This document shows, piece by piece, positions 1 to 60,704 of a DNA stretch of 64,000 nucleotides. Every line of letters begins with the position of its first letter. Within the stretch, counting starts at the first letter, position 1. The position numbers and the translations under genes are program-made. The stretch covers positions 10,596,704 to 10,660,703 of the forward strand of contig OZ038452.1 of assembly GCA_964036195.1 (NCBI GenBank), written 5' to 3'. This DNA is from Sphaerolaimus hirsutus. Taxonomy: Eukaryota > Nematoda > Chromadorea > Monhysterida > Sphaerolaimidae. Below the pieces are notes generated by a model that was given only the letters and a program-made list of their open reading frames with translations, did no database searches and was not told where the DNA came from.

Positions 1-3000
1 CAAATTTCGCCACTGTGGCTGTTTTGCCCGCACCAGAGTCACCCCAAAGCACCAGCGGGCTGAAAACGATGATGGAAAATGTAAGGCAATGTAGTGAAGG
101 AATTTTTGCTGAAACTGCGTACAGTGACTTGTGCCGACAATTCTAAAAGTGAAAAAGTTCCATAATTTTGGAATAAAGTTCCATATCTGCGAGAAAATGC
201 AGTGAAGTATACTCACTAGTTAACTGCACTCACATGCCAATTTGCAGATAAATCGTCCATGTCGTTCCAGAGTTATAAGCATTTTAAAAATATTTCCGAG
301 AAAGCGAACCGACAAGCAAAATATTTTTTGAAATATTTTTAACTCTGGAACGACATGGACAGTTTATCTGCAAATTGGCATGTGAGTGCACTTAACTAGT
401 GAGTACGCTTCACTGCATTTTCTTGCATATATGGAACTTAATTCAAAAATTATGGAACTTTTTCACTTTTTAAAATTGTCGGCGTAAGTCGCAGTGTAAA
501 CGCAGCTTAAGGCGCTGCACACGGTTTTTCTGTGACGACAAAAATTTAGAGTTTTTGAAACTTTGTTGTCATAGAAAAACCATGTGAACAGCGCCTAAAC
601 ACAGATGAAACGATATGGTTACGTTCCGACATTTTCAAAATGTGCAGTTGCATTTAGAATATTGTGGAATCTTGTCGATTTCGACATTCGATACTCCGAT
701 ATGACCGCTCAGTCACCCATCTGACCTTCTATTTTCGGTGTCACTCAATTTGGCGTAGAGCTGTTCCAAAAGCTTGTCTCTACCACAATATGTTTTCGCT
801 CTGCCCAATGCGAAGTTCGAGTGTCTCGCCACCTCGCAATACAGCGGGTCCAGGGTGGGTGAGCCGCGCTTCCGGTTTGCATTTCGAGCATTCGTTATCA
901 ACACTTTCATTTCACTGATGAACATGTCTCCCATCTGCATTGGAATGAGTTTCCATGCAGTTCCGATGATATGGGTTCAATTATCCTGTTCCCTGCCAAT
1001 TTTAAATACCACCTCCAAAAACCGCTGCCCCAAATGGCTGTCTTATACTTTGGATGGTTCATAAACTGAAATCTCCAAACTGTACATAAATAGATCCGAC
1101 AACATTTCCGTCACCACCATAGGTTTGGCTCGCTACGCATCTAAACCCGCTACGCATCTTGACCCGGCACTCATCTTGTGTTACTCATCTGTACTAGGGT
1201 TCAAACGGGATTGACTTTTCGGGATCGGGATCGGGATTGGTTTTTTGAGATTTCGGGATCGGGATTGGCCGGGATTGGGGTCACGGGATCGGGATCGGGA
1301 TCGGGATTGGCATTTTTTCGGGATCGGGATTGGGGTCTTGGGATAGAGATTTTGGCCAATGTTTTGGCATCCACAGTTGTTCATAAAGGTCCAAAAACAC
1401 TGTTGGATGCCAGAAACGTGGTATAAAATGAACGCTGGGGGTTTGCGTCCACATTTTTGCATGCAAAAACGTCGTTTTTCCACTTTTGATAATTTCCACT
1501 AATTTTTCCGGGATCGGGATCCCGGACTTTGGAGTTTCTCGGGATCGGAATCGGGATCGAGACTGCTAAATCCTGGAATTTCACGGGATCCGGGATCGGG
1601 ATCCCGTTTGAACTCTAATCTGTACCGCTATTACACATAAAAGATGCTTGCGGACAGAGGCTGATCCTTATCACTAAAAGGATTTAAACCTAGGTATATT
1701 TTGATAACTCTATTTTGACACATCAAAATGTCTCGAAGTAGAGTGAAAAACATGGCTCTTAATCTACTAAATGAGTGATAAGCCAAGCAGCCTCAAAGCT
1801 TCGCCATCAACTACTAGATAAAAATTGTGTTAAACACATTTTCCTGTTGACCATTGGTTCACGTCACCGTCAATTTGTTATGTAGTGCTTTAGCTACCAA
1901 AGCTTCAAAGTAAAACTACCTTTTTGAGGTAGTTCGCATGCGCTGGCAGTCTTGGATCCAACCCTTTTTCATCATCAAAAGGTACTGTAAATTCGTAAAA
2001 ATTTCTAGGTGGAAGGTGCTTTTTCAAGCGTGCTCGCAGCTCGTGTAGCATTTTGTAACTAGTTTCGTCAATCTGTAAGTTCGCAAAATTTTCGAAAACA
2101 ATAATAGGTATCTAGTGTACCGATATTTTCAAACTATGCGAACCTCTCCCCTTTCATAGGGTTGGACGAAATCGGCAAATCGTTTCACGCTGTCCACAGA
2201 GTTTTTGTTCATTTTTAGTCCATCCAATGTTCTTATGAAAACAAGCGCAGTTTTCTGTGGATTGTCTGCCTTGAAAATGCCTTGTTCTATTTCGCGCTCC
2301 GTTACTGATGCGATGTATTTGTATGGCGATTCTAGCTGTTCAGCACTTTCGTCACTGTGAGCGGGGGCAGCGTTGAGGTGGGTGTCATTTACTACTACGG
2401 TTTTATGTCCCTTGTGTGTGTGAACTCAAAGTTGCACACTTGCTAAAAATTATATTAGGTACTCACTTCTGAATGTTGTACACGGCGTTGGTGAGCACGC
2501 GGACAATCTCCGCCTCCTGCTGAAGCCAGCGCTGCTTGTCCGCTTTCCTCGCTTCCTCTGCGCACGCGCAATGGGTACTGAAAGCGTAAAAATACCTGCA
2601 GTCACAAAAGACCCACCATTATCCAAATCCAAATAGTGCGTGAAAACGTCCGTCACGGGCACGAGCACGTGTCTGGCGGGCACGACATTGTCGTCCCGCC
2701 TGTACCACTTGCGCAGCAGCTGCACCTCCGGCTGGCCGTTGGTGGCGGCGCACAGCTTGGTGAAGTCGTGCAGCGAGATCGACTTGGGCGCCGGTCGACG
2801 CCCGTAGCGGTCGCCGATGAACGCCTGTGTGGATGGTCTGTGATTGGTGCTAGAGTGTGATTTGCCGGTTGGGTTAGGTGAGCTCCGTCTGTTGAAATAG
2901 GCTACTGCTTCGTATTTGCGTTCTTACTAGCGGCAGCCCTTGGGCTGGTCCGCCAATGAGCATGTGACAATAAAAGTAATAATTGAGGCGTCCAATTCTA

Positions 3001-5869
3001 AAAGTCGACAAGTCCACAATATGAAAATTTCGAGTTAGGCCCAGAAACGTCATCTGGGGCTACTCCCGCACATTTTTCATAATTTTCCATAAGTTTTTTG
3101 ACCTCACATGCCCATATGGCATAGTGCCAAATTTTACATTTTTGGGGAAAAATGCACAGAATTTGGGCAAGAAGTCGACAAGTCCACTTAGTTTTGGGCT
3201 AAAAGGCGACAAGTCCATAATTTTTCCATAAGGCAGCCTCGGCTTCCCCGGGAACAAAAATGTTCTCGCGTGCAAGAAGTCGACAAGTCCATTTCCCTCC
3301 CCAAAACCGTTTTGCTCCTACCGAATGGAATTTTATGGACCCCCCATTTTTCACATATACGTTGAGATTAGGGGCTGAAAATTTGACACTTTATTGTCAA
3401 CATATGGAACTTACTGGAAAGCATGAGCCAAATTGGACACGCACCAGAGTTGCGAAAGCGTATTTACGCTTACCTGAAATACCCGGGTAAATGGGTATTT
3501 ATACTTACGCTTACGCTTACGCTTTCATAAAATACCCGTACGCTTTTTTACGCTTTCCCGGCCAAAATACCCGGGTACTAAAAGCGTAAAAAAGCTTTTC
3601 ACACAGTTTAGTTTGCGCTTTTGAAAAAGCATAAAAACACAAAAAAAGAGAGTGAACGAGGCTGCGTTCCAAAAAATGACTGCGGGTATGCAGTAATGCA
3701 CTGGAAATAGTAGCACATGTACAAATTGTGTCACAATATGAATGTCTTGTGAATATGTACTGTGTCATCGAGCAAAATTGTGGCTTCAGGTGAGAAAATT
3801 TTACTGAAAATGGATCCCGACGACAATTTTATCGCCCTTGACAGCACTAACTCCACTTTCGAAGATGAGGATGACTTAAGTGTTGCTGCCGATCAATAAC
3901 CAAACAAAACATGAGGGTAGACTATGGTAAATGGACACCCTAAAAATTTCACCGAGACCTTGATTTGGAAAGAATTCACTGAGTAAAAATATTTTTACGC
4001 TTACGCTTTTATTTACGCTTTCCTAGGTATTTTAAAAATACCTTACGCTTCCAGTATCCATACTCAAAATTTGGAAAGTGTATTTACGCTTACGCTTACG
4101 CTTTCCAAAAATACCGGTATTTTAACAACTCTGACACGCACCACGGGCCTGGAATTGGGTCTGAAACTTTAAATGCGATTTACTCAAAATCGCATTTTGT
4201 GGACTTTTAGAATTAGACGCCTCAATTATATGTTTAGTAATGCTGTAAGTGGTAGGTCATATAACTTTTAAGAAACGAGTAAATTGAAGCCCCGTCAGTG
4301 AAAATCTGTTTCACCTAACTTGACATTTTGTGACGTCACTTATCACCTACCACTTTATTGCCACTCGCTGAATTACTTTCCGTATCAAAATTTCAATCGA
4401 GTAAATACCACAGTTATTGCGCTTCACCAACAAAAAAGGCCGACCACAAAGCTGGGTCCGAGCGACACGTGCTTGCAGTGCTGCACCTCCCTGATGCACA
4501 GCTCCACGCCGCCCAAGTCGACGGCGGCGTGGTCGTTGACGCCCCAGCGCATGTCGGCCACGTGCACGTCGAGCGGCTCCGCCAGCCGGGCGCACCAGTC
4601 GCGCAGCTCGGGCAGGCACACCGTGAACAGGTGGTTCCGCTCGGGCAGGAAGTCTGCGTTGCGTTGTAGAATGGTCTATGTGCTCGAATAATTCCCCCTT
4701 GAAAAATCCTACTGTTAGACAAGTGAGGAGAAAATAATTCAACCACTTGAACAAGTCCCCACCTAAATGATGGAATAAAGATAATGCACATTTTTTTAAT
4801 ATCGAAGATGTCAGTCCAAGCAAGGGGGCTGCCTGTGTCTGTCTGATTTGATTCATCAAATGTAGTGCTAAAACAAATGGAACGTGCACTACCAACGGAG
4901 ACAGAACAAAATGTGTAAATAATGTTGTGTGACACGCTCGAAAATTTTGATGAAACAATAATTACCCCACTCGAATAGTCCCCCCTCAAACAGGTTTGAC
5001 AAAAATTGATTCCCGGGGGCATTATTCGAGTAAGTACGGTAGTACCTTGACAGCACCGATCGTTAGACTCACCATGGAATGTTGAGGATAGGAAAAATCT
5101 GACCACATTAGATTGCTGCAAATCTGCGGCTGGAGGGAATTCCTTGCCACTTAGCGCCGCCACATTCTTTTGCTGCATCTCCACTGCACTCAATTTTCTC
5201 CTGCTGTAGATTTTGTCACTTCTGTTTTCGGCTGTAAGTGGAATGGTCTTTTTATCTACCTAACGTATTCCCTCGTAAACCTCGTTCCCCTCCCATCGAA
5301 AACCCCCCTCAAAATTCCAACCATGAAAAAATAAACCACCGGTGAGTAGTTCGAGGAAATATTTGTATTACCGTATTACCTCGAAATACCCCCATGGGGG
5401 TTTATTATTTCCCCAGCAAAATTTGAGGGGGGGTTAATTCGAGGGGGGGTTTATTCGAGGGGGGGTTTTATTATTTCGTCAGAAATTTTCGTAAGGATCG
5501 TAGTAAATAGTAGGCATTTACGTACCCAAAATAGGTAATAAATGTGTCCAAACAGGATATATTTGGACATAAAAACGTAGATAGCTACACAAACTACTCT
5601 ATGTGTAGCTGCAATGCAAATTAACAGTAATATACATCATGTACATTGCGTACATGACGTATTTATTATGTACATGACGTACATCATTCCGAAGGGGGGG
5701 GTATTTCGAGGGGGGGGTTTATTATTTCCCCAGCCCATTTTGAGGGGGGGTTAATTCGAGGGGGGGGTTAATTCAAGGGGGGGATAATTCGAGGTAATAC
5801 GGTATATCCTTCTATTTTGCAATCGCTGTTAAACTCACAACGGAGTTGGAACGTCTGCATCAGCGTCAT
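1..5869 (-). CDS. NACHT/WD-repeat (NWD1/NWD2-like) STAND ATPase, 5' part, truncated by window edge
   Basis: Nine exons on the minus strand, in order of translation: 5869-5839 (ATG at 5869), 5231-5073, 4653-4445, 2824-2617, 2557-2467, 2354-2144, 2072-1920, 934-726 and 59-<1. Every junction is GT-AG and every phase matches, giving about 443 codons without a stop. Most donors are good; the one after 4445 (GTCGGC) is weak. An in-frame TAG lies just upstream of the ATG. Family signs in order are: VRFFLSSTFHDFLPERN, the opening typical of NWD1/TEP1/NPHP3-type N-termini; DVHVADMRWGV; FIGDRYGRRPAP; a WY..DDN.VPA block; SVTEREIEQGIF; then LYCEVARHSNFALGR. The last exon holds a Walker A P-loop, GDSGAGKT, at about residue 430. 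This is established as an N-terminal sensor plus NACHT ATPase; WD repeats would lie beyond the window. It is probably a cytosolic signalling or scaffold ATPase. Substrate and partner are unknown. Introns contain a foldback, hAT elements and a long inverted repeat. Confidence 0.85.
110..505. repeat. foldback element inside NWD-like gene intron
   Basis: Two arms of roughly 180 bases are near-perfect reverse complements. GTTCCATAATTTTGGAA and TGCCAATTTGCAGATAAA on the left reappear inverted on the right. The tips resemble the element at 9539-9910 (GCGTTTACAC type), so this is a MITE-like foldback lying between the exons ending at 726 and starting at 59. Confidence 0.8.
510..597. repeat. small foldback element, GGCG...TGTGACGACA type
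   Basis: AGGCGCTGCACACGG and TTCTGTGACGACAAA are mirrored by TTGTTGTCATAGAAA and CATGTGAACAGCGCCT. Arms are about 34 bases with an 18-base loop. It shares its end sequence with the larger element at 9539-9910. Confidence 0.7.
1195..1617. mobile_element. non-autonomous hAT element, TAGGGTTCAAAC ends, GGGATC core
   Basis: Termini are TAGGGTTCAAACGGGAT on the left and ATCCCGTTTGAACTCTA on the right. Flanking bases ATCTGTAC at 1187-1194 and 1618-1625 are an exact 8-bp target-site duplication. The interior is mostly short GGGATC/GGGATTGG repeats around a non-repetitive middle of about 200 bases that is also found in the copy at 43051-43466. No transposase is present. The 8-bp duplication with TAGGG ends is the hAT pattern. 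Confidence 0.88.
2979..4236. mobile_element. long inverted-repeat element, TTGAGGCGTC ends, carrying a nested hAT element
   Basis: The left end TTGAGGCGTCCAATTCTAAA and the right end TTAGAATTAGACGCCTCAA are inverted. Inside are several copies of GTCGACAAGTCCA. Related sequences occur at 16390-16992 and 53184-53260. A hAT element (3445-4133) is inserted within it, so the host element is older. It lies in an intron of the NWD-like gene. Confidence 0.75.
3445..4133. mobile_element. non-autonomous hAT element, CAGAGTTG ends, TTACGC core
   Basis: It begins CAGAGTTG and ends TTTTAACAACTCTG. An exact 8-bp duplication, ACACGCAC, flanks it at 3437-3444 and 4134-4141. Subterminal zones are arrays of TTACGCTTACGC. 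A middle part of about 350 bases is non-repetitive. No transposase gene was seen. Confidence 0.88.
5369..5804. mobile_element. TACCGTATT-type MITE, CCTCGAAATACCCC core
   Basis: The ends TACCGTATTACCTCGAAATA and TTCGAGGTAATACGGTA are inverted and bounded by TA, as expected for Tc1/mariner-like insertion. The interior holds runs of GAGGGGGGGTTTATTATTT and a spacer around GTACATCATGTA that recurs in the copy at 40219-40637. It lies between the first two coding exons of the NWD-like gene. Confidence 0.75.
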
Positions 5870-9060: not shown

Positions 9061-9520
9061 TACCGTATTACCTCTAATATAAGGTATACCTTATATTGTT
9101 TTCGTCAGATTTTTCGAGCCAAAAGTTATGCCTTATATTAGAGGGTGCCTTATATTAGAGGGTACCTTCAATTATTTTCACCAGATTTTACCAACAGTGA
9201 ACAACGATACAATTCATTTTTTTCAAATTAGAATGTACGAAATAGGTGGTACAGTATCACTACAATATGACAGAAGTCGACGAAGAGTTATCGCAGTGCC
9301 CTTTGGCACCATTTGCATCATTTTCCGCCATGTTTTGCAACCGTTTTTATGATTTTGCGCGTTTTGGCACGCAGCCAGCTGTGCCTTATATTAGCGGTAT
9401 GCCTTATATTAGAGGGTACCTTATATTTATTTCGTCGCGTTCAAAATAGCCAAAAGTTATACCTTATATTAGAGGGTACCTTATATTAGAGGGATGCCTT
9501 ATATTGGAGGTAATACGGTA
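9061..9520. mobile_element. TACCGTATT-type MITE, CCTTATATTAGAGGG core
   Basis: The ends TACCGTATTACCTCTAATAT and ATATTGGAGGTAATACGGTA are inverted and bounded by TA. The interior is built from CCTTATATTAGAGGGTA repeats around a unique middle whose sequence recurs near 63640-63700. It shares only its outer 14 bases with the poly-C MITEs. Confidence 0.82.
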
Positions 9521-25406: not shown

Positions 25407-27375
25407 TAGGGTGTCAAATTTCCGTTTCCGTTTTCCGTTTCCGCCTTTCCGCAGGAAAATTTTTTACCTTTCCGTTTTCCGTTTTCCGGCAGCCGAAATT
25501 TTTTTACCTTTCCGTTTTCCGTTTTCCGGCAGTCGAAAAATTTTTACCTTTCCGTTTTCCGTTTTCCGGCAGCTGAAAATTTTTTACCTTTCCGTTTCCG
25601 TTTTTCCGGCCCATTTTTCCGTTTTCCGGCTGAAAAATTTTTACCTTTCCGTTTCCGTTTTACCAGGCCATTTTTCCATTTTCTGGCTCGATTTTCAGTT
25701 TTCTGGCTTTTTTCCATTGTTTTTCCAATCTGTATTTATCTTCAATTGGCTCATCCCATTGTGTTGTTTTTGTCTCTTGGAACAGCATTGACAACTGGGA
25801 TTTCAGGGTCAGTGAAACAGGTGCTGTGAACCCAATTGGGTCATATGCTGACACCAATAATTTATTCAAGTTTCATCTGGTTGGTGTTGTGATGCTGTCA
25901 ATTTGCAATTTTGGTGTTGATATTGCCAGCATGTCAGTTTGATTTTATTTCATGCCCATTACTGCGACAATTTTATTCACCTTTGGACTCCTGTCGTTTT
26001 CTGCTATTTCATTCATGACTGATCTGGAGTTTGACAGCCATTCCCTCATGTTCATAGAACATTGGTTAAATAAAGCTTTGACTTTGTAATATAGTTCTAA
26101 AGCTTCAACTTCATTCGTGACACTCATGATGAAGTTTTTGACGTAAATGTTGTTTATTATCATCGCCAACTGGTTTCGTTCCCCTTCATTTTCTTCATAT
26201 TCATTCATGTTGTTTATTGTCACATTTAAATGGTATTTTATGACTGCTCCCAAAATTGCTGGGCTGCAGACAAGTCCAAACAGTACACGTTTAAAACAAA
26301 GTACTATTAAGTTATTTTCAGTTACTGGTTTTGAGGCATCTTTCAGCCAGAAAAATCCTGTGTAATCTCTAGCTTGGTCATGCAATCCTATTTCCAAAAA
26401 TGCCTTTTCAATATCGGCAATTAATGCTAGATTGCCTGCCCTGAACCTCAGGAGTAGGCCCAGTGCTAATGGTGTTGTAATTGGTCCTCTAAAAAGGCAC
26501 TCGTTGAAACTGGGCTTACCTGCTGACCCATCGTACATAATTCTGCATGATTTCAATTTGTCCAGCATGATTACTGGCTGGTGTGGCAGGTAATGAATCC
26601 CCTTGTTGTCTGTTTTGTCATCACAGATCTCAATTATTCCCTTTTCTAGTTGGTCGTCCAAAACTTTTTGGTATTGTTCGAATAAGTTTGGATCTTTGTT
26701 GAATCTTCTTATCAGTGATTTAAACCACACCAAGGCTTCTGCTTTTCCCGTGGGCAGGTCACTGATACTCTCTTTATATGGCCAGTCAATATAGTATTGT
26801 TTGTTGTTGTCGTTGAATTTTATGCTATTTATTATCATCTCCTCTGCAATGTCATCATCAATTGCATAGGGGTCATCAGTGATTCCCACTGCTTCTAGAC
26901 TGTGAAATTGTCGTAGTGTTTCCTTTCCTATGGCCACTATGGCTACTTTTTGATGATTTTTTGTTGGTTCAGTTAAGCTTGAACTACAAGTGAAGTTACA
27001 GGCATGATCCATAGTTGCAGAATGTACAGCTACCACAATCAAAGCCAAACAGGCAAACCTGCATGCAGGTTTTCCTTCTGCAAATTTGTCTATTACCGTG
27101 CTAATTTCACTTTATTTTTTTCCGTTTCCGTGAAAATTTTGCTTTCCGTTTTCCGTTTTCCGGCATTTCATTTTTCCGTTTTCCGTTTTCCGGCCGACAA
27201 TTTTTTTTTACCTTTCCGTTTTCCGTTTTCCGCTGAGTGAAATTTTTTTACCTTTCCGTTTTCCGTTTTCCGGCAGAAATTTTTTTTTACCTTTCCGTTT
27301 TCCGTTTTCCGTAAAGTGAAAAATTTTTACCTTTCCGTTTTCCGTTTTCCGTAAAAAAATTTTTTTGACACCCTA
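25407..27375. mobile_element. non-autonomous hAT element, TAGGGTGTC ends, carrying a BEL/Pao fragment
   Basis: It begins TAGGGTGTCAAATTTCCG and ends TTTTTTGACACCCTA, with an exact 8-bp duplication GTCACAAT at 25399-25406 and 27376-27383. Both flanks inside are arrays of ACCTTTCCGTTTTCCG. The centre is minus-strand retrotransposon sequence. The related element at 58888-59625 has the same architecture with most of the centre deleted. Confidence 0.9.
25660..27048 (-). pseudogene. BEL/Pao-type retrotransposon reverse transcriptase fragment, decayed
   Basis: A 367-codon frame (27048-25945) continues in the same frame past two stops to about 25660. Recognisable blocks include HYLPHQPVIM, RIMYDGSAGKPSFNECLF, GPITTPLALGLLLRFR, ADIEKAFLEIGL and, after the stops, LVSAYDPIGFTAP. 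These match the order in BEL/Pao pol (primer grip, fingers and palm, connection). The catalytic Y-x-D-D position reads YVKN, so the metal-binding aspartates are lost. No protease, integrase or LTRs are present. It is cargo inside a hAT element and not an independent retrotransposon. Confidence 0.85.
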
Positions 27376-28425: not shown

Positions 28426-30322
28426 TAGCATTCGAAAAATAACCCGTGATTTATATTTTCGAAAATCACAATAAATATAAATAACCCGTGATTTATATAT
28501 ATTTATATTTTTTCCAAATTCTGAGTGATATATTTATATATATTTTTTAAATTTGAAAAAAAATCACTGAGAAAATCACTCATACTTGATACATTGTGGT
28601 GCAATTATTGCGCTTTATGACTAAAACATGTAATCTGTGCAAGAGAAATTTGCGAGTGATTTTCTCCAGAAAATCTCTCTGTTCATGTAGAGCATTATTG
28701 GATTAAAATTTATTTGAAGCAGGTAAACATTGTGCCTACACACTAGTTTTCACCCTGACTTTTTTGAAAACTGAAATGGCCAAAAATGGTGAAATGTTTC
28801 CATCAAGTTTTCCACTACTGAAAGCTATATACAGGGTGGCGCACGTCAGGCGCACGGTTTCAATCTGCAGTCAACAAGTCAATGTTAAATGAAACCTGTT
28901 TAAATTTGGTATGGCAGTAGATAAATGCACCCCATTTAGTATGTTAAGAGCACATAGCAAAATTCTTATGTCGGAATGTGTAGCACATTGAACGGATGTT
29001 TTCCTTTGGAGTTATGTGAAGGAGAAGGTCCACAGTCCACAGTTGCCCAAAATAATGGACATTGAGCAGTTGAAGCATCTGATGGTCCAGCAGTTCAATG
29101 AAATTTTGCCTAGCATGCGTGTGAATGTTGTGGTTGAAATGCTTTATCATTTGGGTATTGTCATATTGCGATAATGGCGGTGGTTCTGTAGAGTGATGTT
29201 CCTTCATATGGTTTGATGTATGTGAAAATTTTGCGATATGAATGCGTGCTCTTAACATACTAAATGGGGTACATTTATCTACTGATATACCAAATTTCAG
29301 CACTTTTCATTTAAAATTGACGTGTTGGGAGCAGATTGAAACTGTGTGTCTGACGTGTGCCACCCAGTATGTTCTGTTTTCACAAATGGCATGAATTTTG
29401 GTGGGTGGTGTTGGCAAATAACTAGTTTGATTACAGCTCAAACTCAAATGATGACAAATGGTGACATCACCATCAATTAGTTTTCATTTTGTATGTGACA
29501 AAAATGTAAACTGTTTTAGTAACTTTTTTTATGTCATGCTGCTATGAATTCTATGGTTATCTTTTAGGTATAAAGCATCTCTCTATCTTATAACATACTT
29601 TCCTGAAATAAAACATGACTTTGAACCAAAAAATACCAATTTGATGTGATCAAAATTTATCTACAGTAATTGAAAGCTCAGTTTACCATTTTTGAAAACT
29701 GATGATGCTTGGTGACATGCACCAATGTGAGCTGTTTTCAAATATGGGGAACAATTGTGGAAAACTGTCACCATGGTGTCACCAGTGCCACTAGTGTCAT
29801 CACAATGTTGCATGAATGTAGCCATGTGTCCAAAAATGAGTTTTCACAGCACATCACCATTGAAAAAGTGCTGAGCATGAGCACCTATTTAGTCAAATAT
29901 CCATTGCCACAACCAGGCGCTATAGGTTGAGTGCTAAATATTTGCAGTGCAAAATATTTTTGAAGTTTTCATTGAGGTTGAACTGAAGGTTGAATTTTTC
30001 TGTGATATTTGCTTGATGTTTTCACTTGTAAAATATTGTATAACTGAATACTGCTTGTGGAATGATAATAAATGGACTGTGGTATATTAGAGTACATTTT
30101 TTTGCTTGCAAATGGTAAATAAAGCCCAGAATATTGCTTGAAATTGAAATAAAGCGCAAGTGATTTTTTGAGATTTTTTTCGAGCTTAGAGTTATTTTTT
30201 CAGTAATTTAATTATATTTTCTGGAGACCTAGAGTGATTTATATATATTTATATTTTTTCCAATATTGGAGTGATATATTTATATATATTTTCCAAAAAA
30301 TTGGTGATTTTTTCGAATGCTA
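28426..30322. mobile_element. non-autonomous hAT element, TAGCATTCGAAAAA ends
   Basis: The left TAGCATTCGAAAAAT and right TTTTTTCGAATGCTA are inverted, with an exact 8-bp duplication ATGGAGAT at 28418-28425 and 30323-30330. Subterminal zones repeat GTGATTTATATATATTTAT. A Tc1/mariner-like MITE (28832-29367) is nested inside. Confidence 0.88.
28832..29367. mobile_element. Tc1/mariner-like MITE, CAGGGTGGC ends
   Basis: The left CAGGGTGGCGCACGTCAGG and right TGACGTGTGCCACCCAG are inverted and bounded by TA on both sides. Subterminal blocks TTTAGTATGTTAAGAGCA and TGCTCTTAACATACTAAA are also mirrored. The 119-codon minus-strand frame inside is not recognisable as a transposase. Confidence 0.75.
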
Positions 30323-30959: not shown

Positions 30960-31596
30960 TAGGGTGTCAAAAAAAATTTTTTACGGAAAACGGAAACGGA
31001 AAAAATTTTTCAGCGGCCGGAAAACGGAACGGAAAACGGAAAAAAATGTGCACTTGGCGGAAAACGGAAACGGAAACGGAAAAAAATTTTCAGCGGCCGG
31101 AAAACGGAAAAAGAGGCCGGAAAAACGGAAACGGAAAAATCAAATTTGCATGGAAATGGAAAAAACTTGCTGAAATTTTGCCGGAAAACGGATAAAATTT
31201 GCTGAAAATTTGCTAGAAGTGGAAAAAATTTGCAGTAATTTTGCTGGAAACAGAAAATTTTTCACATCATTGACAATCTGCATGAATTTTTGCCAGTTTG
31301 GCTGATCAGAAAACAGAAAGTTAAGCCAAAAAAGGGTGAAATGAGGCGGAAAAGTGGAAAATTGAGGCGGAAAAACTGGAAATTGAGGCAGAAAACGGAA
31401 AAAAGGCGGAAAAACTGAAAATTTGGCTGGAAAACAGAAAATGAGCCGGAAAAACGGAAACGGAAAAAGTAGTTGCCGGAAAACGGAACGGAAAACGGAA
31501 AAAAATTTCAGCAGCCGGAAAACGGAACGGAAAACGGAAAAAATTTGTCTGCGGAAAACGGAAACGGAAAACGGAAAACGGAAATTTGACACCCTA
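30960..31596. mobile_element. non-autonomous hAT element, TAGGGTGTC ends, reverse orientation
   Basis: It begins TAGGGTGTCAAAAAAAATTT and ends GGAAATTTGACACCCTA, with an exact 8-bp duplication TTGGAAAG at 30952-30959 and 31597-31604. The interior is GGAAAACGG satellite, the complement of the TTTTCCG core in its relatives. Lys/Arg-rich open frames here are not genes. Confidence 0.9.
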
Positions 31597-39066: not shown

Positions 39067-39512
39067 CAGGGACGTATCCAGGATTTTTGAGCGGGGGGGG
39101 GGCTGCTTGTTTACGGAAGCCGGCGAACGGGGGGGGCTCAGCCCCCCCCCCTAAAATTTTTCCCTATAAAGGGACGGAAAAGCGTTTTGGCGCTAGCGCC
39201 ATACAAAGGCACCATTCCATGGCGCTATTGGCGTTGGCGCCAGCGCCAGGAACCGCTTTAAATGTATGTAAAATGCATACATATACAGCGAAAATAGCAA
39301 AAATGGGTTTTATTTCCGAGTATATTGATTTACAGGGGCCGATCCGCCGAAAATACAATGCATGGGGACGAAATTGCGCGCTTGCGCGCAAAATTTTTTA
39401 AGAAACATCGGAAAATATATAGGAAAAGTTGCATTTTCCGGGACTTTTTGGGTCTCACCCCGGGAAGGGGGGGGCTGCAGTCCCCCCCCGCCCCCCCCTG
39501 GATACGTCCTTG
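39067..39512. mobile_element. non-autonomous hAT element, CAGGGACGTATCCAGG ends
   Basis: Ends CAGGGACGTATCCAGG and CCTGGATACGTCCTTG are inverted. Exact 8-bp duplication GTGGAGGC at 39059-39066 and 39513-39520. The interior contains GGCGCTAGCGCC, CATGGCGC and the block TTGCGCGCTTGCGCGCAAAA. Confidence 0.9.
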
Positions 39513-42319: not shown

Positions 42320-43782
42320 GTACAAGGGTCCCCTCTGTACATTGGTTCAAGGCGTTATCAAAGGCAAAATGAGTGACATTTTTGTGTTCAATAAAGACAT
42401 GAGCTACGATTTGCTGAAACAGAAGGATTTGTGCAATGTGGAAGTGATTGTGGTCCCTTTTCACAGGGTTCGTTTCCAGGTACCAGACTTTATTAGGAAT
42501 GCAAGCAGGCAAGGCAAATGTAAATTCTCATTATAATGATTGTTTTCCATACAAATTTTATTAAAAATGATTGATCGCAATTAAGGTTGGCAAGCGATTT
42601 TTTCCGATCCAATCTGATTTAAAAAAATCGCATAACCTGCTCCGATATAAACAAATCGCTGGCAAAAATTTTGGTGCTCATGCACCCAGGTAAGATAGAA
42701 TTTTTTCAAACCGTAATCACATTTTTGTTTTCCGTATACTTGTTGCGATTAGGGGTATTTTAGATTTTGACCCTCTGGGAGGTTGCATATAGTGAAAAAG
42801 ATATAGTTTAAAATAGGTAATAAGGAGCATTAACTTTATTGATTTGAAGCAAAACTTTGGGTATAATTTCGCAAAAATCGCTCCAGCTAGCATTTGGGGA
42901 AAAGTTTGCCCCCGAGATAAAGAGATAGCCAGGCGATTTGGGAGAGGTATCCGACATCTTGTTTTAAACTGGTATTTAATTAGGATTCTCCTTCCTAGCA
43001 AAGTGCTCAGTGTTCTTTAATGTTTTTTGGGTTTATTTACTGTCTATCGCTAGGGTTCAAACGGGATTGACTTTTCGGGATCCGGATCGGACTGGTTTTT
43101 TGAGATTTCGGGATCGGGATCGGGATTGGCCGGGATTGGGGTCACGGGATCGGGATCGGGATTGGGGATGTGGGATAGAGATTTTAGCCAATGTTTTGGC
43201 ATCCACAGTTGTACATAAAGGTCTAAAAACACTGTTGGATGCCAGAAACGTGGCATAAAATGAACGCTGGGGTTTTGCGTTCACATTTTTGCATGCAAAA
43301 ACGTCGTTTTTTCACTTTTGATAATTTCCACTAATTTTTCCGGGATTGGGATCCCGGACTTTGGAGTTTCTCGGGATCGGGATTTGAAAAGTTTCGGGAT
43401 CGGGATCGGGACTGCTAAATCCCGGAATTTCACGGGATCCGGGATCGGGATCCCGTTTGAACCCTATCTATCGCTACAAATCTATATTTACTCAAATATT
43501 TCCTCCCTATGAATAATTCCCTTTTAAATGCCTCCCCCCCCCCCCCAAAAAAATGTCCGCCTGAAAAGATAATACAGCAATTTATTCGACTAAATCCGTA
43601 ATCTATTTAATCTCACTTTCAACCACCAACAGCGCGTGCTCAAGCACAACCTGAAGACCACCTACGATGCCATTCGCGTTTGGCCGCTGAAAGGCCGCAC
43701 CTGCAGCGGGCAGCGAAGATTCATTCCGCTCGATTACGTGAATAAGGCCGACAAGAACGTCGCCGGCACGTCTCAGTCTCAG
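42320..43782 (+). CDS. two joined exons of an unidentified protein
   Basis: Exons 42320-42479 and 43633-43782 have acceptors CACTCAG and CCAACAG, donors CAG|GTACCA and CAG|GTTGAG, and match at phase 0. Third positions are G/C-rich in the second exon. The peptide reads GPLCTLVQGVIKGKMSDIFV, FNKDMSYDLLKQKDLC, VEVIVVPFHRVRFQ, then LKHNLKTTYDAIRVWPLKG and QRRFIPLDYVNKADKN. It looks like an ordinary conserved globular protein, but I do not recognise the family. A hAT element (43051-43466) sits in the intron. The upstream exon ending at 35514 is phase-compatible. Confidence 0.6.
43051..43466. mobile_element. non-autonomous hAT element, TAGGGTTCAAAC ends, GGGATC core
   Basis: Ends TAGGGTTCAAACGGGAT and ATCCCGTTTGAACCCTA. 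Exact 8-bp duplication TCTATCGC at 43043-43050 and 43467-43474. Its non-repetitive middle (TTTTGGCATCCACAGTTGT) matches the copy at 1195-1617 closely, so these two are true siblings. Confidence 0.92.
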
Positions 43783-46181: not shown

Positions 46182-46580
46182 CGGCCGTAAAGTAAACCCG
46201 GCCGTAAAGTAAATCCGTAAGGCATAGTTGTACAAACGTATTTACGTTTACTCGATAAATACGTATACTCGAGTGCTGCGTAAATACGTTTACGTTACCT
46301 CCCGAAAAAATACCGGTACTCACTTACTCGCGTACTTTGAAAGTACGCGGGTACAGAAAACGTGATTGAGAACATTTTTTGAGTGCATAAAAAGCAAAAA
46401 ATCACTCACATGAATATAAACGGCTGAAAAAATAGCGTAAAATAACATGAAAAATCTAGAATTCGCGATGGGTAGGGATAGCGACAACTCTCGCTTTCAC
46501 CTATACTCATTTTTACGTTTTCCTAGGTACAAAACTAAAGTAGCACCCTCTACTTTACGGCCGGGTTTACTTTACGGCCG
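46182..46580. mobile_element. inverted-repeat element, CGGCCGTAAAGTAAACC ends
   Basis: CGGCCGTAAAGTAAACC is present twice at the left, and its complement GGTTTACTTTACGGCCG with a second copy is at the right. The interior has TACGTTTACTCG/ACGTATACTCGAG repeats like the CAGAGTTG hAT cores. No duplication was identified. Confidence 0.6.
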
Positions 46581-46794
46581 GACCATCCCCGGTGGGGTCG
46601 ACTCGTCGAAATATTTTACGCGTTGCGTGATGTGATTCGAGGGATTTTAAGAATATTTTGAATGCTTTGGTCGAAAATAGGGTTGCAAAATGATTGATCT
46701 TTAAATTGCTCGATCAAAAAAAATTTATTTAAAAAATTGAGACTACATGTGCGTCCCAATGTAGAACAACGTAAAAGCTAAGAAGACCTCGCCT

Positions 46795-47016: not shown

Positions 47017-47787
47017 TAGGGCTCAAACGGATCCAGAATCCCAAAGACGAAGCCAGGGGGGGGGGGCGGGGGGGGGGGGAGAGCCCCCCCCCCCTTCCCG
47101 GGTCAGACCAAAAAGGTGACAGAAATGGCACTTCCAGACGACGATTTTGTCGTAGTTAGAAAAATTCTTGCGCGCAAGCGCGCATTTTACCGTCACAACG
47201 TAGATTTTCAGTTGACCAGTATCCGCGGCCTCAAAACCAGTAAAAAACCCTACATTCATGTCCGAGCCGCTGTATATGCCTGTAAGATACAGACATATAC
47301 AGCTCTTTTGGCGCCACTGCGAACGCCAGTGGCGCCATGGCGTCACGCCTACGAATGGCGCCAGCGCCATGGCGCCATTCCCTAACTGCAGGGGCAAAAT
47401 TTTAGGGGGGGGCCGCCCCCCGTTCGCCGGGCTCCGTATACAATGCGCCCCCTCCCCGCTCAAAAATCCTGGCTACGTCCCTGCAGAATCCTGCTACTTT
47501 TCAGGATATTGCGGTTCCGGATCTGATCCCTAGACTAAAAAAACAATCCTGATCGGGATCCCGCTCCCCGGTCTCGAAAATTTACAAAACCCTATTCAAT
47601 CCCGATACAACTTCCCCAATTTGCCAAATGAATTTTTACACTGGAAACTGTCAACTTCAAGTTTTTTAGACCTTATTTATGAAAAATTAGAGAAAAACCC
47701 CGAATACTAGAACTTTGCACAAAATCCTGATCCGGAAACATCAAAAAAGCAATCCCGATCCTGAAAGCCGATGCTGTTTGAACCATA
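47017..47787. mobile_element. hAT element, TAGGGCTCAAACGG ends, containing a second hAT element
   Basis: Ends TAGGGCTCAAACGGATCC and GATGCTGTTTGAACCATA. Exact 8-bp duplication TCTGTAAG at 47009-47016 and 47788-47795. The core has diffuse ATCCTGATC/ATCCCG repeats. A CAGGGACG element sits inside at 47042-47483. Confidence 0.88.
47042..47483. mobile_element. hAT element, CAGGGACGTAGCCAGG ends, nested
   Basis: The left CAAAGACGAAGCCAGG and right CCTGGCTACGTCCCTG are inverted. Exact 8-bp duplication CAGAATCC at 47034-47041 and 47484-47491, both inside the older TAGGGCTCAAAC element. It contains CATGGCGC palindromes and TTGCGCGCAAGCGCGC. Confidence 0.9.
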
Positions 47788-49047: not shown

Positions 49048-49714
49048 TACGGTTCAAACGATATATCGTATCGAATATCGAATATCGGATATCGACCATT
49101 TTTTAATATCGAATATCGATATCGAAAATTTTGAAAAAATATCGAATATCGATATCGAAAATTTTGAAAAAAATATCGAATATCGATATCGAAAATTTTG
49201 AAAAAATATCGAATATTGATATCGAATATCGACCATTTTTTCGATATATCGAACCTATATTGTGTCCCTAAAAAGTTATCATTTTCATTTTGAGATATTT
49301 ATGATTGATCTGATCTGAGAATTGTATTAGATGAGTAAAAGTACAGTACTTATAATGTGATTTTTGTTGGAGTGCTAAATTTGAAGCCAGAAAATGCTGA
49401 TATTCTATTTTTTGCAGCATGCCATTAAGCAATCAGGTTATCAGTATGAACTAATATCTACCAATTGTTATTTGTCTGATACACATTGATTCATCATGTT
49501 TTTTCTACATGTTCTACTTTTGAGTGATGTAAACCTTGTTAAAATCACTTGTACCATTTACATTTAACTAAAGAGATGATTAACCATGCGTGCAACCACA
49601 TGAAAATACAATATGTCACTTGAAATATGCCTTGCTATACCAAAAGCAAATCGCAATATAGAATATCGAAAATATCGAATATCGATATCGCAAAGTCATA
49701 TCGTTTGAACCCTA
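49048..49714. mobile_element. non-autonomous hAT element, TACGGTTCAAACG ends, ATATCGA core
   Basis: Ends TACGGTTCAAACGATAT and ATATCGTTTGAACCCTA. Exact 8-bp duplication CCTGTGCC at 49040-49047 and 49715-49722. The left third is ATATCGAATATCGATATCG satellite; the rest is unique AT-rich sequence with a short ATATCGA block at the right end. Confidence 0.9.
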
Positions 49715-54687: not shown

Positions 54688-55907
54688 ATGGCGCGCATGT
54701 ACCTGCAGCTGTTGGCGGCGCTGTTGGCGGCCGCGTGCACCTGGGCCATCCCCATCGACAACGGACTGGAGGGCGAGCCCGAGGTCGAGTGCCTGGGCGA
54801 CTCGATCCAGATCAACTTCAACGCGCGCAACCCCTGGGAGGGCAACCTGTACGTCAAGGGGTTGTTCGCCGACGACGGGTGCAAGGTGACGGGCACGGGC
54901 GCTAACCAGCTCGCATCCATCGTGCTCGGTTTCGACTCGTGCAACGTGCAGCGGCAGCGGTCGCTCGAGCCGCGCGGCGTGTTCGTGCACGCGACCGTGG
55001 TGCTCAGCTTCCATCCCATCTTCCTGACCAAGGTCGACCGGGCCTTCCGCATCCAGTGCTTCTACATGGAGGCGGACAAGACGGTCAGCGAGGAGCTGGA
55101 AGTGAGCCCCATCACGACCGGCTTCGCCACCATGAACGTGCCCATGCCCGTGTGCCGCTACGACATCCGCGAGTCGTCCGACCCCGAGAGCAACCCCGTG
55201 CAGTTTGCGCTGATCGGCCAGTCCGTGTACCACCACTGGATCTGCGACACGGACACCGTGGACACGTTCTGCATGCGCGTCTACGACTGCAAGGTGGACG
55301 ATGGCAGCGGCCAGCGCGTCATCCAGCTCATTGACCAGGTACGTCACTCAGTTCGGTGCATGTGCACTGGCCTTGAACTGTGTGCAGTGCAGCGCAGCGC
55401 ATGCGACTCGTGTCCACGCAGGACGGGTGCGCGCTCGACCGCAACCTGCTCGACAACCTCGACTACCCCGAGGACCTGCGCGCCGTGAAGGAGTCGCACG
55501 TGTTCAAGTACGCCGACGTGCCCAACACGCAGTACGAGTGCCAGGTGGCGATCACGGTCAAGGACCCCGGCACCGAGTGCGCCAGGCCGGCGTGCGGCGA
55601 GGCGCCCGGCACCAGAGGCAAGCGCGCCGCCGAGCACGCGCAGGAGAAGGACATGGGCAGCATGGACGTGGCGCCGCCCAAGGCGCTCTTCGTGGGCGAT
55701 CTGGAGCTCACCGAGGAGGACGTGCCGGCGGCGCTGCTGGTGCACCACGTGCAGGCGCCAGTGAGCAGCCGAGGGACCGTCAGGGCGGCCGACCAGTTGT
55801 GCGCCTCCACGGGCGCCATCGTGTTCGTGGCCGCGCTTCTAGTGCTCGCCTTCACCGGCACCGCCACCGTGCTCGCCCTGATGCACGCGCGCAGACAAAC
55901 CAAGTGA
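54688..55907 (+). CDS. cuticlin-like ZP-domain transmembrane protein
   Basis: Two exons, 54688-55338 and 55422-55907, joined CAG|GTACGT and CACGCAG|GAC in phase 0, give 378 residues. Features in order: signal peptide (MARMYLQLLAALLAAACTWA, cleavage near 20-21); ZP domain from about VECLGDSIQINF (30) to CARPAC (275) with conserved cysteines and the cuticlin hallmarks FHPIFLTKVDRAF, QCFYMEADKTV and FALIGQSVYHHWICD; a furin-type cleavage site RGKR at 282-285; a spacer; a membrane helix GAIVFVAALLVLAFTG at about 348-368; and a short basic tail. Such proteins are secreted by epidermis, cleaved, and polymerise into cuticle layers such as alae and cortical ribbons. Codons are almost all G/C-ending, unlike the AT-rich flanks. 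The start is chosen for the signal peptide and because the TATA box lies just upstream. Confidence 0.93.
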
Positions 55908-56162: not shown

Positions 56163-56255
56163 CATGACAGTTCTGCTAAACTTGTTTGTGTTTCTTGACG
56201 CACTATCTTAACATCAAATCAAAGCATTGTTCAGTATCACAATAACACATTAACT

Positions 56256-56683
56256 TCCGTATTTCCTCGAAATAGCCCCAGGGGGTTTATTTTTTCAGAG
56301 TGAGAATTTGAGGGAGGGTTAAACGAGGGGGGTATTTCGAGGGGGGTTTATTTTTTCGCATTTTTTTTTGTTGAAATTCCAGTAATAAATTGTCGTCTGA
56401 AACGTACGCAGACGTCGAAAAATGCAACAAAAATCGCCATTTATAGGGCTCTAAAGACTTGTATAATTGTGTAGACGTATAAACACTGTTCTCACATAAC
56501 AGAGTCATCGTTTTTAACGTGTGTTCTGCATTGCCCGGATGACAAACCGCAGCCTTTGTCATTTACGTTCTCTATATACTAAATTGGGGGGGGGTTATTC
56601 GATGGGGGGGGGTTTATAAGTTCATAGTGTCCATTTTGAGGGGGGGGGGTTTCGAGGGGGGGGGATTTCGAGGAAATACGGTA
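56256..56683. mobile_element. TACCGTATT-type MITE, CCTCGAAATACCCC core
   Basis: It begins near TTCCGTATTTCCTCGAAATA and ends TTTCGAGGAAATACGGTA. The middle (GCAACAAAAATCGCCATTTA) is shared with the copy at 62338-62799 in inverted order. Confidence 0.72.
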
Positions 56684-56707: not shown

Positions 56708-58030
56708 CAGAGTTGTTAAAAGTACTGAACTTTTTCCAAAGTATATGTAAACGTAAAGTATTTATTTTTTTACTCACCCCCAGAGTACAGAATATGTAAA
56801 GTAACATTTTTTACTTTTACTCATGAGTAAACATGAGTACTTTTCCCCTCAGAAAACGTCAAATTAAATACTTTTAAGGAATTTTGCCCTAATTTTCACA
56901 CAAAATCAGTGATTTCAGTACCTTCTGATGATTTAAACCTTCACGTTCAGCAGCAGGGTTGGCAAAGTCTCAGAAAAAAAATAAAAATAAAATGGAAAAT
57001 TAGAGAATAAAATAAAATAAAATAAAATGGAAAATTAAAAAAATAAAAATACAATTTTACTAAAATTTGAATTTTTGTAAAATTTTAGTAAAATTGTACA
57101 ATGATTTGAATTTTTGTACAATTTTAGTAAAATTTTACAAAAACTCGAGTGTCTGTTAATTTCTGTAGAAAGTTTTCTATCATGTTGCTTAAGTTCCTAG
57201 CTGCCAATTTGCAGAACTAGTGCCTTGTTGTATCTTTCATTGTTGTGATTGAAACATATCATTGCTCAAAATTGCAAATGTTCACATTTAAAAAAATATT
57301 TTCACCTTAAAGATCACTAATTTATGCGATTTGTTTCCCATTTTCTTCGTTCCATACCTTGGAAACGCGTAGATATTGAACCCCGCAAGCCCTCCCCCAC
57401 TCAAAAAACAACAACAAAATTTTAGGTATCTTCCCTTGGGAGGAGCAATTTGATGCATATATCCAGGACCTCCTGAGGGTCAAAATACAAAATGCCTACC
57501 TCACAACTCGTGTCAAAAGTTTACATAAAATTTTTTTTGTATTCATCTGCATGCTTCTAGCATGCATATTGTTTTATGTCCTTGCATCCAAGATTTCCGA
57601 TTTTTTGTAAAATTTTTGTAAAATATTTGTAAAATTTTTGTAAAATGGTTTCATTTTATTTTATTAATGACATTTCAGAATAAAATAAAATAAAATTAAC
57701 TGAAACATGAATAAAATAAAAATAAAATACAATTTTAGTAAAAAGGATTTTACTAAAACCAACCATGTTCAGCAGTTCGTGTGTGATGGTTTTTTAAATC
57801 TATTTTTCAAATTTTTTCCTCTTCGCTTTTTTTCTCACTTTTTTCCATCTGTGCCTTAAAAAATCCTAAAACAAAGCCTATCCGAAATACGTTTTCTGTA
57901 CTCGAGTACTTTCACAAAGTATACATGAAAGTGAGTACAGGTACTTTTTTCAAAGTATATGTGAACGTATTTCCTCAGTACTCAAGTATACGTACTTTTG
58001 AGTAAACATAAATACGTTTTAACAACTATG
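56708..58030. mobile_element. hAT element, CAGAGTTGTTAAAAGTACTG end
   Basis: Left CAGAGTTGTTAAAAGTA, right TACGTTTTAACAACTATG. The flanks GTTGCAAT (56700-56707) and GTTGCAAC (58031-58038) match in 7 of 8 bases. Tips carry AAAGTATATGTAAACGT-type repeats. The interior is AT-rich with AAAATAAAAT and GTAAAATTTT tracts, perhaps a further insertion. Confidence 0.75.
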
Positions 58031-58692: not shown

Positions 58693-58880
58693 TAGTGATG
58701 GAACGGCACCGGGGCACCGGTGCCCCGGTGCTGGACATCGAGAGGCACCAGCACCATGCCGGTGCGGTGTGGTGCCCTTTTTCGAGGGTGCCCTGTCGGT
58801 GCCATTTTTTTAAGAATAGCACCGGTGCCGGTGCGGTGCGGTGCGATGCCATTTTTTTGAAGGTGCCAAAGGTGCTAGCA
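58693..58880. mobile_element. TAGTGATGG hAT end with GGTGCC core
   Basis: TAGTGATGGAACGGCACCGG leads into GGTGCCGGTGCGGTGCGGTG repeats. The core differs from the GCGCCAAGC core of 59831-60704 although the terminus is the same. The right part is interrupted by the TAGGGTGTC element at 58888. Confidence 0.65.
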
Positions 58881-58887
58881 CCAGGAC

Positions 58888-59625
58888 TAGGGTGTCAAAT
58901 TTCCGTTTCCGCCTTTCAGCAGGAAAATTTTTTACCTTTCCATTTTCCATTTTCCGGCAGCCAAAAAATTTTTACCTTTCCGTTTTCCGTTTTCCAGCAG
59001 CCAATTTTTTTTACCTTTCCGTTTTCCGTTTTCCGGCAGCTGAAAAATTTTTACCTTTCCGTTTCCGTTTTTCCGGCCCATTTTTCCGTTTTCCAGCCGA
59101 AAATTTTTTACCTTTCCATTTCCATTTTACCAGGCCAATTTTCCATTTTCTGGCTCGATGTTCAGTTTTCAGTAAATTCTTATTGTTGTAGTAGTGTATT
59201 TTTGCTACCTTTTGATGATTTTTTGTTGTTTCAGTTAAGCTTGAACTACAAGTGAAGTTACTGGCATGATCCATAGTTGCAGAATGTACAGCTACCACAA
59301 TCACAGCCAAACAGGCAACCCTGCATGCAGGTTTTCCTTCTGCAAATTTGTCTATTACCGTGCAAATTTCACTTTATTTTTTCCGTTTTGTGAAAATTTC
59401 ACTTTCCGTTTTCAATTTTCCAGCATTTCATTTTTCCGTTTTCCGTTTTCCGGCCGACAATTTTTTTACCTTTCCATTTTCCGTTTTCCGCTGAGTGAAA
59501 TTTTTTACCTTTCCGTTTTCCGTTTTCTGGCAGAAATTTTTTGTTACTTTTCCGTTTTCCGTAAAGTGAAAAAATTTTACCTTTCCGTTTTCCGTTTTCC
59601 GTAAAAAAAATTTTTTGACACCCTA
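58888..59625. mobile_element. non-autonomous hAT element, TAGGGTGTC ends, remnant BEL/Pao cargo
   Basis: Ends TAGGGTGTCAAATTTCCG and TTTTTTGACACCCTA. Exact 8-bp duplication ACCAGGAC at 58880-58887 and 59626-59633. About 180 bases in the centre (59200-59380) match the right edge of the retrotransposon cargo in 25407-27375 (for example CATGATCCATAGTTGCAGAA). Confidence 0.9.
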
Positions 59626-59830
59626 ACCAGGACCAAAGTGAAAGGGACCGGGAAAGCACCAGCCATGTTTTCATAGGGTGTAAAATTTCGTCCGAAGCAG
59701 GTGTTTAGTCATATTAGAAAAGCAGCAATATATTTACCCAACTGTTTTAGTCTACTTTGGAAAAAAATGTCCCATCAGATATATTTTGCAATCTGCCATA
59801 CCCATAGAACATCCACCCCATAGTCAGTAG

Positions 59831-60704
59831 TAGTGATGGAAAAAGCGCCAGACGTTTAGCGCCAAGCGCCAAAAGCGCCATGGCGCTTTTCCTACCCACA
59901 GCGCCAAGCGCCAATGGCGCCAGAGCAAAATAGCGCCAAGCGCCAAAAGCGCCATGGCGCTTTTCTGGATGTCAGCGCCAAGCGCCAATGGCGCCACAGG
60001 GTAATGGCGCCAAGCGCCAATAGCGCCAGCGCCAAAAAATTTTTCTTCAATTCGTTTGTAGAATAAAGACTACATAACTGCGACGTACTGCTGATGTCGA
60101 TGTAGTCGATTTAACTTTAACCATTAAAGTTCAATCCACCAAGTAAGGGGTAACTATTCAGGAAGGGGATTCAGTGATTAGAAAGCAAAAATCCATTTTC
60201 TTGAAATCAATTATCTCTTGTGTCTTAATCATCAACGTTTATAAGTTGAGGCTTAAAATGAATAAAGGTGGATACAATGGATACATTTTTGAGAAAACAG
60301 AAAGCACTTGCTCCACGTCCAAATATGATGACCTTTGAATAAAAAAGCACAATTAAACACCTCTACTTGTATTCTATGTAAATAAAGTTGTCTCCTAATA
60401 TAAATCAATATTTAATAAATATGTCCCATAACACCCTTACATAAATCAATATTTATTCAGTTGACCTAAAGTTGATCAACTGGAGTTTCAATTCCACAGC
60501 ATCATGGCAATTGTTATAATCAAGGTTGGCGCTTTTTTGGCGCCATTTAAAATGCCGGCGCCAGGCGCCAATAGCGCCACCAGAAAATGGCGCCAAGCGC
60601 CAATGGCGCCACGCTAAAATAGCGCCAAGCGCCAAAAGCGCCATGGCGCTTTCTGCTTTGGCGCTAGCGCCAGGCGCCAGCGCCATGGCGCTTTTCCATC
60701 ACTA
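59831..60704. mobile_element. non-autonomous hAT element, TAGTGATGGAAAA ends, GCGCCAAGC core
   Basis: Left TAGTGATGGAAAAAGCGCC, right GGCGCTTTTCCATCACTA. Exact 8-bp duplication GTCAGTAG at 59823-59830 and 60705-60712. Both subterminal zones of about 180 bases are GCGCCAAGCGCCAAAAGC satellite; the middle 450 bases are unique and AT-rich. Confidence 0.92.

What the first reader, a model, noticed from the sequence alone, without database searches (positions are those of the whole stretch)
1195..60704. hAT-like elements built as conserved terminus plus private satellite core
In at least ten elements with exact 8-bp duplications the outer 10-20 bases are followed by a short-period satellite unique to that family: GGGATC, TTTTCCG, ATATCGA, GCGCCAAGC, TTACGC, TGATTTATATAT. 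In known hAT elements the transposase binds repeated subterminal motifs. I infer that each satellite is an amplified binding-site array and that families diverge by changing it. Such elements would also seed satellites around the genome. I know of no description of this as a general design in one genome.
Basis: partly seen in the sequence, partly recalled or inferred. Interest (0 to 1): 0.85.

Follow-up and report, generated by a model that had tools for sequence, protein, structure and literature searches.

The report
hAT transposons with switchable docking arrays
In what looks like a nematode genome, several kinds of jumping gene carry many copies of a short DNA word just inside their ends, and sister kinds differ by the same one-letter change in every copy, as if a lock had been re-keyed for a new enzyme.

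Summary
In detail: 12 hAT-like elements with exact 8-bp duplications, holding 2,378 of the window's 4,800 tandem-repeat bases. Of 28 hAT dimerisation-domain matches in the 348 Mb genome, 22 lie inside elements with the same kinds of ends and arrays, so these are hAT elements.

(1) One terminus serves several cores. (2) Arrays at the two ends run in the same direction and are not mirrored: 44 direct, 0 inverted, 20 undecided of 64 elements. (3) Related elements share a subterminal scaffold but differ at one base of every unit. Against the consensus of 21 AAGCGT copies, an AAGTGT element differs at 14 of 14 unit positions, 0 of 70 other unit bases and 10 of 191 bases outside; three AAACGT elements differ at another unit base in every aligned unit.

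Most likely the units are family-specific transposase binding sites, re-keyed together as the DNA-binding domain changes. Limits: the AAGTGT case rests on one complete element and two partial ends; no intact transposase or BED domain was obtained; binding is inferred from published hAT work.

The parts
1195..1617 (+). A1: hAT element, terminus TAGGGTTCAAAC, CGGGAT units; duplication ATCTGTAC
   Evidence: 43 further matches in the genome by DNA search, some partial
1597..1606 (.). head-to-head unit pair CGGGATCCCG beside the right TIR of A1
   Evidence: read
43051..43466 (+). A2: second copy of the CGGGAT family; duplication TCTATCGC
47017..47787 (+). A3: old A-class element, decayed units, holds a nested hAT-like insert at 47042-47483; duplication TCTGTAAG
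49048..49714 (-). A4: A-class terminus with CGATAT units; duplication CCTGTGCC
49059..49068 (.). head-to-head unit pair CGATATATCG beside the left TIR of A4
   Evidence: read
3445..4133 (+). B1: terminus CAGAGTTG, AAGCGT (TTACGC) units; duplication ACACGCAC
3456..3471 (.). head-to-head unit pair AAGCGT-N4-ACGCTT near the left TIR of B1
   Evidence: read
25407..27375 (+). C1: terminus TAGGGTGTCAAA, TTTTCCG arrays at both ends in one direction; duplication GTCACAAT
25948..27108 (-). open frame inside C1 with a weak reverse-transcriptase match below the Pfam cutoff
30960..31596 (-). C2: TTTTCCG family; duplication TTGGAAAG
58888..59625 (+). C3: TTTTCCG family, nested in F2; duplication ACCAGGAC
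28426..30322 (+). D1: terminus TAGCATTCGAAAAA, TGATTTATATAT arrays; duplication ATGGAGAT
59831..60704 (+). F1: terminus TAGTGATGGAA, AGCGCC/GCGCCA arrays; duplication GTCAGTAG; nested in F2
58693..61111 (+). F2: same terminus as F1 but GGCACC/GGTGCC arrays; no 8-bp duplication left
56954..57767 (+). H: terminus CAGGGTTGG, AATAAAATAA arrays; duplication TTCAGCAG
39067..39512 (+). G1: hAT-like element CAGGGACGTATCCAGG without an array shared by both ends; duplication GTGGAGGC
56708..58030 (+). B-class element with GTAC-type core around H; duplication 7 of 8

Best explanation
These are non-autonomous hAT transposons whose subterminal repeats are family-specific recognition sites for the DNA-binding (BED-type) domain of the hAT transposase. 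Shown here: hAT membership; the same unit at both ends; arrays that run in one direction; related elements with one scaffold but a different base in every unit. Inferred: when a transposase lineage shifts its DNA-binding specificity, elements stay mobile only if their sites follow, so all units come to differ together while the scaffold is kept. A one-direction array between inverted TIRs gives the two ends different site layouts (head-to-head beside one TIR, head-to-tail beside the other), which may supply the end asymmetry that Hermes needs. Many sites per end probably help short elements capture scarce transposase.
For: 22 of 28 hATC matches lie in array-bearing TIR + duplication elements, 18 with exact and 4 with one-mismatch duplications; four representative peptides pass the PF05699 cutoff. 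Same unit variant at both ends in 15 of 16 A rows, 10 of 10 F rows, 7 of 11 B rows. B1 consensus (21 copies) against AAGTGT element L059: 14 of 14 unit positions changed, 0 of 70 other unit bases, 10 of 191 outside, p = 1.2e-15; against AAACGT elements L025, L066, L028: 13/13, 12/12, 13/13 changed, outside 25/191, 29/188, 25/191. Same-variant copies keep 15 of 15. B and A units vary less than other bases. Published: Hermes BED domain reads AAG(T/C) repeats and needs unequal ends (PMC10368747, passages); Herves binds four direct repeats of CGATTCAT, and binding words differ between hATs (PMC3143072, passages); hAT-type DNA-binding domains prefer CGG, CGC, GCGC or AT-rich words, and those of four hAT proteins match their own subterminal regions (PMC8097297, parts 1-2 of 3).
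Against: No transposase with a DNA-binding domain and no binding data were obtained. C copies show no unit constraint (4 of 152 against 24 of 875 variable columns; 5 copies). The B contrast of unit against neighbouring end bases is only p = 0.07 outside CpG, and other-unit against outside bases p = 0.067 for L059 and 0.27 for L028. The AAGTGT case has one complete element plus partial ends in L044 and L060. 4 of 11 B rows lack one clear variant at both ends. G1 lacks an array, and the L class is undecided for direction.
Confidence: 0.7

Rival explanations
1. The cores are ordinary micro- or minisatellite growth by slippage inside the elements, without a role in transposition; the same-direction arrays are halves of one array split by later inserts.
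For: Same-direction arrays at both ends are what a split array would give. TRF arrays also occur outside hAT elements, 1,018 bases in 44,956 bp assigned to neither class. C copies show no unit constraint.
Against: Slippage cannot change one base in each of 14 spaced units on a kept scaffold at both ends. The unit lies in the inner TIR. A and B units are more conserved than other bases.
Confidence: 0.12
2. The unit differences are mutational: CpG decay or strand-specific hypermutation of one family made the others.
For: AAGCGT to AAGTGT and GCGCC to GCACC are CpG transitions; 13 of 15 changed B1 units read G to A on one strand.
Against: The two plus-oriented units changed C to T instead, and all 15 give AAGTGT and none AAGCAT; 4 of 7 CpGs outside units are kept. 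The AAACGT shift leaves the CpG (13 of 15 and 15 of 15 kept). CGGGAT against CGATAT is not of this type.
Confidence: 0.08
3. The arrays bind a host protein (for example a domesticated hAT-type factor) and serve expression, silencing or nuclear positioning of the elements rather than transposition.
For: Host proteins derived from hAT bind CGG or GCGC words (PMC8097297). Unit constraint alone does not name the binder.
Against: The unit is inside the TIR and differs between element families of one genome, as expected of family-specific transposases.
Confidence: 0.1

Closest known systems
Herves (Anopheles gambiae hAT; PMC3143072, passages)
   Same: A short word (CG/AATTCAT) repeated at both ends is the transposase binding site; four direct repeats suffice for binding; binding words differ between hATs
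   Different: Fewer, imperfect copies; no family series with one scaffold and a concerted one-base difference in the passages seen
Hermes (Musca domestica hAT; PMC10368747, passages)
   Same: BED domains read short subterminal repeats; a quasi-palindromic pair follows the left TIR; end asymmetry is needed for activity
   Different: Site is AAG(T/C), scattered; here denser arrays in one direction at both ends
hAT-19 and CGGBP-type DNA-binding domains (PMC8097297, parts 1-2 of 3)
   Same: Preference for CGG, CGC, GCGC or AT-rich words, found in subterminal regions of their own hATs; specificity differs between relatives
   Different: That work is on the protein side; membership of these elements in hAT-19 was not tested
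MITEs that carry tandem repeats (review PMC9659126, passages)
   Same: Tandem repeats inside non-autonomous DNA transposons
   Different: Discussed there as sources of satellite DNA; here subterminal, at both ends, and continuous with the TIR
Atlantic cod gadMor-hAT-1784 (PMC12368964, passages)
   Same: hAT MITE whose ends are built of tandem repeats
   Different: Units of 167-169 bp in 600-bp inverted ends; here 6-40 bp periods in one direction

Membership tests
hAT superfamily | 8-bp target site duplication | tested here: met
   12 window elements exact; B1 family 20 of 20 fetched copies, 18 exact and 2 with one mismatch
hAT superfamily | short TIR of hAT type (YANNG start) | tested here: met
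   the YANNG rule itself is recalled; D1 (TAGCA) does not fit the last base
hAT superfamily | transposase with hATC dimerisation domain within the element | tested here: met
   22 of 28 genome matches for classes A (CGATAT), B (AAACGT), C, L and one F (possibly nested); none seen for the CGGGAT or AAGCGT families or for D and H
hAT superfamily | N-terminal BED zinc finger and catalytic RNase H-like core | not tested
   PF02892 search did not complete; elements held are short derivatives
subterminal transposase-binding repeats as in Hermes and Herves | short word repeated near both ends | tested here: met
subterminal transposase-binding repeats as in Hermes and Herves | binding by the element's own transposase | not testable with these tools
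   needs protein
random microsatellite expansion | unit identity independent of family and end | tested here: not met

The most novel reading that the evidence does not exclude
hAT families in this genome split by key switching: the transposase DNA-binding domain shifts its word by a base or two, and all of the dozen or more binding sites in an otherwise kept scaffold are replaced to match, giving sister families (AAGCGT, AAGTGT, AAACGT; CGGGAT, CGATAT, CGGGAC; GCGCC, GCACC) that no longer share transposase. One-direction arrays between inverted TIRs encode the end asymmetry. A second, TA-flanked class of elements in the same genome follows a like plan.
Probability: 0.5. Interest if true: 0.87.

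Novelty: new variant of a known kind. Interest (0 to 1): 0.75.

Why it matters
If true, it lays open the DNA side of how transposon families split and how non-autonomous elements stay matched to a changing transposase: natural series with one scaffold and a dozen or more sites that differ by one base. That makes coevolution of transposase and site directly testable by binding assays, bears on how hAT DNA-binding domains (repeatedly domesticated as host factors) change specificity, and accounts for much of the short tandem repeat content of this window.

Tried and rejected
Pattern AGGGTTCAAACGGGATYG in viral contigs: 13 loci; none continues into a GGGATC array, and 12 of the 13 share one other flanking sequence, so I treat them as unrelated. 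A-class scaffolds (same outer TIR, similar spacer) align too gappily to count unit by unit, so the counted claim rests on B. Considered and rejected: one core per terminus; arrays mirrored like the TIRs (one non-hAT counterexample at 46163-46594 is inverted). A random genome sample for element density could not be had. Autonomous copies: the 22 enclosures are 1.0-3.2 kb; the open frames I looked at hold only the hATC end. The genome-wide count of the TAGGGTTCAAACG terminus was given up; the zf-BED and AAGTGT searches did not complete.

Literature: seven searches; no listed title or abstract start describes a concerted change of hAT subterminal words. The library holds open-licence papers only. 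I saw passages of four papers (PMC10368747, PMC9659126, PMC12368964, PMC3143072) and two of three parts of PMC8097297; the others as listings.

Full report
SETTING. The window is 64 kb of a 348 Mb, 762-contig genome. A cuticlin-like gene (query 54688-55338) has 111 protein matches; the named ones listed are nematodes, and the ten best are 59-68% identical over 88-99% of the query. I take the host as a nematode; no name is given.

OBSERVATION. A scan for exact 8-bp duplications flanking an inverted repeat listed 28 pairs, of which I accept 12 as hAT elements. With a longer inverted repeat and hAT-type ends, duplication lengths 6 to 10 gave 5, 0, 10, 0, 0, and 0 in each of 20 Markov sequences; the five at length 6 were not inspected. 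TRF arrays are concentrated in the 12: 2,378 of 4,800 array bases in 10,341 bp, circular-shift mean 762, 0 of 2,000 shifts as high.

hAT IDENTITY. PF05699 (hAT dimerisation) has 28 matches in the genome. I looked in the 3-10 kb held around each for known termini with an 8-bp duplication (up to 2 mismatches allowed; 0 or 1 found). 22 of 28 are enclosed: 9 in TAGGGTGTCAA elements with CGGAAA arrays, 7 in TAACGATGGCA elements with TTCGAA arrays, 3 in TAGGGTTCAAAC elements with CGATAT arrays (two of the three in one element), 2 in CAGAGTTG elements with AAACGT units, 1 in a TAGTGATGGAA-type element with GGCACC arrays (this one also shows a C-type end and may be a nested piece). Six are not enclosed. 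Four representative peptides score 32.5 to 65.3 bits against PF05699, cutoff 21.4. The enclosing elements are 1.0-3.2 kb, so they look like deletion derivatives. No hATC match was tied to the CGGGAT or AAGCGT families, nor to D or H.

ANATOMY. (a) One terminus, several cores: TAGGGTTCAAAC with CGGGAT, CGATAT or CGGGAC; TAGTGATG with GCGCC or GCACC; CAGAGTTG with AAGCGT, AAGTGT, AAACGT and GTAC-type cores. The CGGGAC case is one 139-bp element, L067:5378-5516. (b) In the A class the unit is the inner part of the TIR: TAGGGTTCAAACGGGAT against TAGGGTTCAAACGATAT. (c) Both ends agree: 15 of 16 A rows, 10 of 10 F rows and 7 of 11 B rows have the same main variant at both ends. In the A rows the other variants never exceed one hexamer at an end. 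Row caveats: L016 appears twice with two right ends, and in the 139-bp and 268-bp elements the two end windows overlap. (d) Arrays are direct. In C1, C2 and C3 TTTCCG/CGGAAA occurs 41, 34 and 26 times on one strand and 0 on the other. Over 64 elements in 270 kb of held sequence, direct end similarity exceeds inverted by more than 1.5-fold in 44, the reverse in 0, neither in 20. This is not a random sample (loci were centred on hATC matches or A1 copies), a few of the 64 are probably chance pairs, and the 8 L elements are undecided because TTCGAA is palindromic. In the window D1 scores direct by alignment (101 against 28) but not by shared hexamers (25 against 31), and A3 and G1 show no clear direction. 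(e) In three elements one end has a head-to-head unit pair beside or near the TIR (1597-1606, 49059-49068, 3456-3471; read).

CONCERTED DIFFERENCE. B1 (AAGCGT) has 40 scored matches including itself at 91-100% identity, of 2,884 first-look candidates. Of those 40 I fetched 20: all have an 8-bp duplication (18 exact, 2 with one mismatch) and 13 to 17 AAGCGT units. Against the consensus of these 21 copies, the ends of L059:1408-2179 differ at 14 of 14 unit C positions, 0 of 70 other unit bases, and 10 of 191 bases outside (p = 1.2e-15 for unit position against outside; p = 0.067 for other unit bases against outside). One of the 14 aligned units has an extra base. The interiors do not align convincingly. 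AAGTGT is also seen at one end of L044:383-1295 (exact duplication; no unit at the other end) and in a partial end in L060. I have no genome-wide count. Three AAACGT elements (L025, L066, L028) differ at the preceding base in 13 of 13, 12 of 12 and 13 of 13 aligned positions; other unit bases 1 of 70, 2 of 67, 5 of 69; outside 25 of 191, 29 of 188, 25 of 191. Same-variant copies L055 and L068 keep 15 of 15. Against a mutational cause: of 15 B1 units, the 2 plus-oriented ones changed C to T and the 13 minus-oriented ones G to A, so the change follows the unit (the point rests on those 2); all 15 give AAGTGT and none AAGCAT; 4 of 7 CpGs outside units are kept; the AAACGT shift keeps the CpG.

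CONSTRAINT. B, 21 copies, variable non-CpG columns: unit 5 of 68, other end bases 34 of 210 (p = 0.07), middle 110 of 351; CpG columns 8 of 34, 9 of 14 (p = 0.018), 18 of 26. A, 10 copies: unit 8 of 88, other 56 of 280; CpG 10 of 46, 8 of 14. C, 5 copies: 4 of 152 against 24 of 875; CpG 15 of 76 against 5 of 24, so no difference. I read the deficit in A and B as selection on lineages that could still move.

MECHANISM. Known hAT transposases read short repeated words inside the TIRs (Hermes; Herves), and hAT-type DNA-binding domains prefer CGG, CGC, GCGC or AT-rich words. The words here fit: 10 of 13 units contain CG against 23% of random window hexamers, 7 of 13 a CGG- or CGC-type triplet against 16%; I chose the 13 and they are not independent. 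I infer that each unit is the site of its family's transposase, that sites are multiplied because short elements compete for transposase, and that families split when the protein changes its word and all sites follow. That direct arrays avoid a long hairpin is speculation.

LIMITS. No BED domain, intact transposase or binding data. One of the 12 elements lacks an array, so the design is common here but not universal. Whether the elements seed free satellites was not tested.

Noticed in passing
5369-5804, 9061-9520, 10322-11283, 18201-18465, 40219-40637, 56255-56683, 61518-61761, 62338-62799: A second class of elements with TIR TACCGTATTNCCTC and TA at both ends also carries tandem words (CTCGAAATACC, CTCGAATTAACC, TAATATAAGG), mostly in one direction.
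   Followed up: partly
25948-27108: Element C1 encloses a 387-aa open frame with a weak reverse-transcriptase match (E 0.0057, below cutoff); sequence like 59223-59290 recurs in the shorter C3, which suggests captured DNA carried by the family.
   Followed up: partly
46163-46594: A pair of inverted GGCCGTAAAGTAAA repeats around a B-like piece: arrays mirrored, unlike the hAT elements.
   Followed up: no
38497-39512 and 47042-47483: CAGGGACGTAGCCAGG elements with 8-bp duplications and G-rich ends; one sits inside A3 with duplication CAGAATCC.
   Followed up: no
L064:2213-3297 and L064:6046-7130: Two copies of one TAACGATGGCA-class element on the same contig share the duplication CATACAGG, which suggests a local duplication or an assembly repeat.
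   Followed up: no
21960-24287: Large near-palindrome whose arms are close copies of each other.
   Followed up: no
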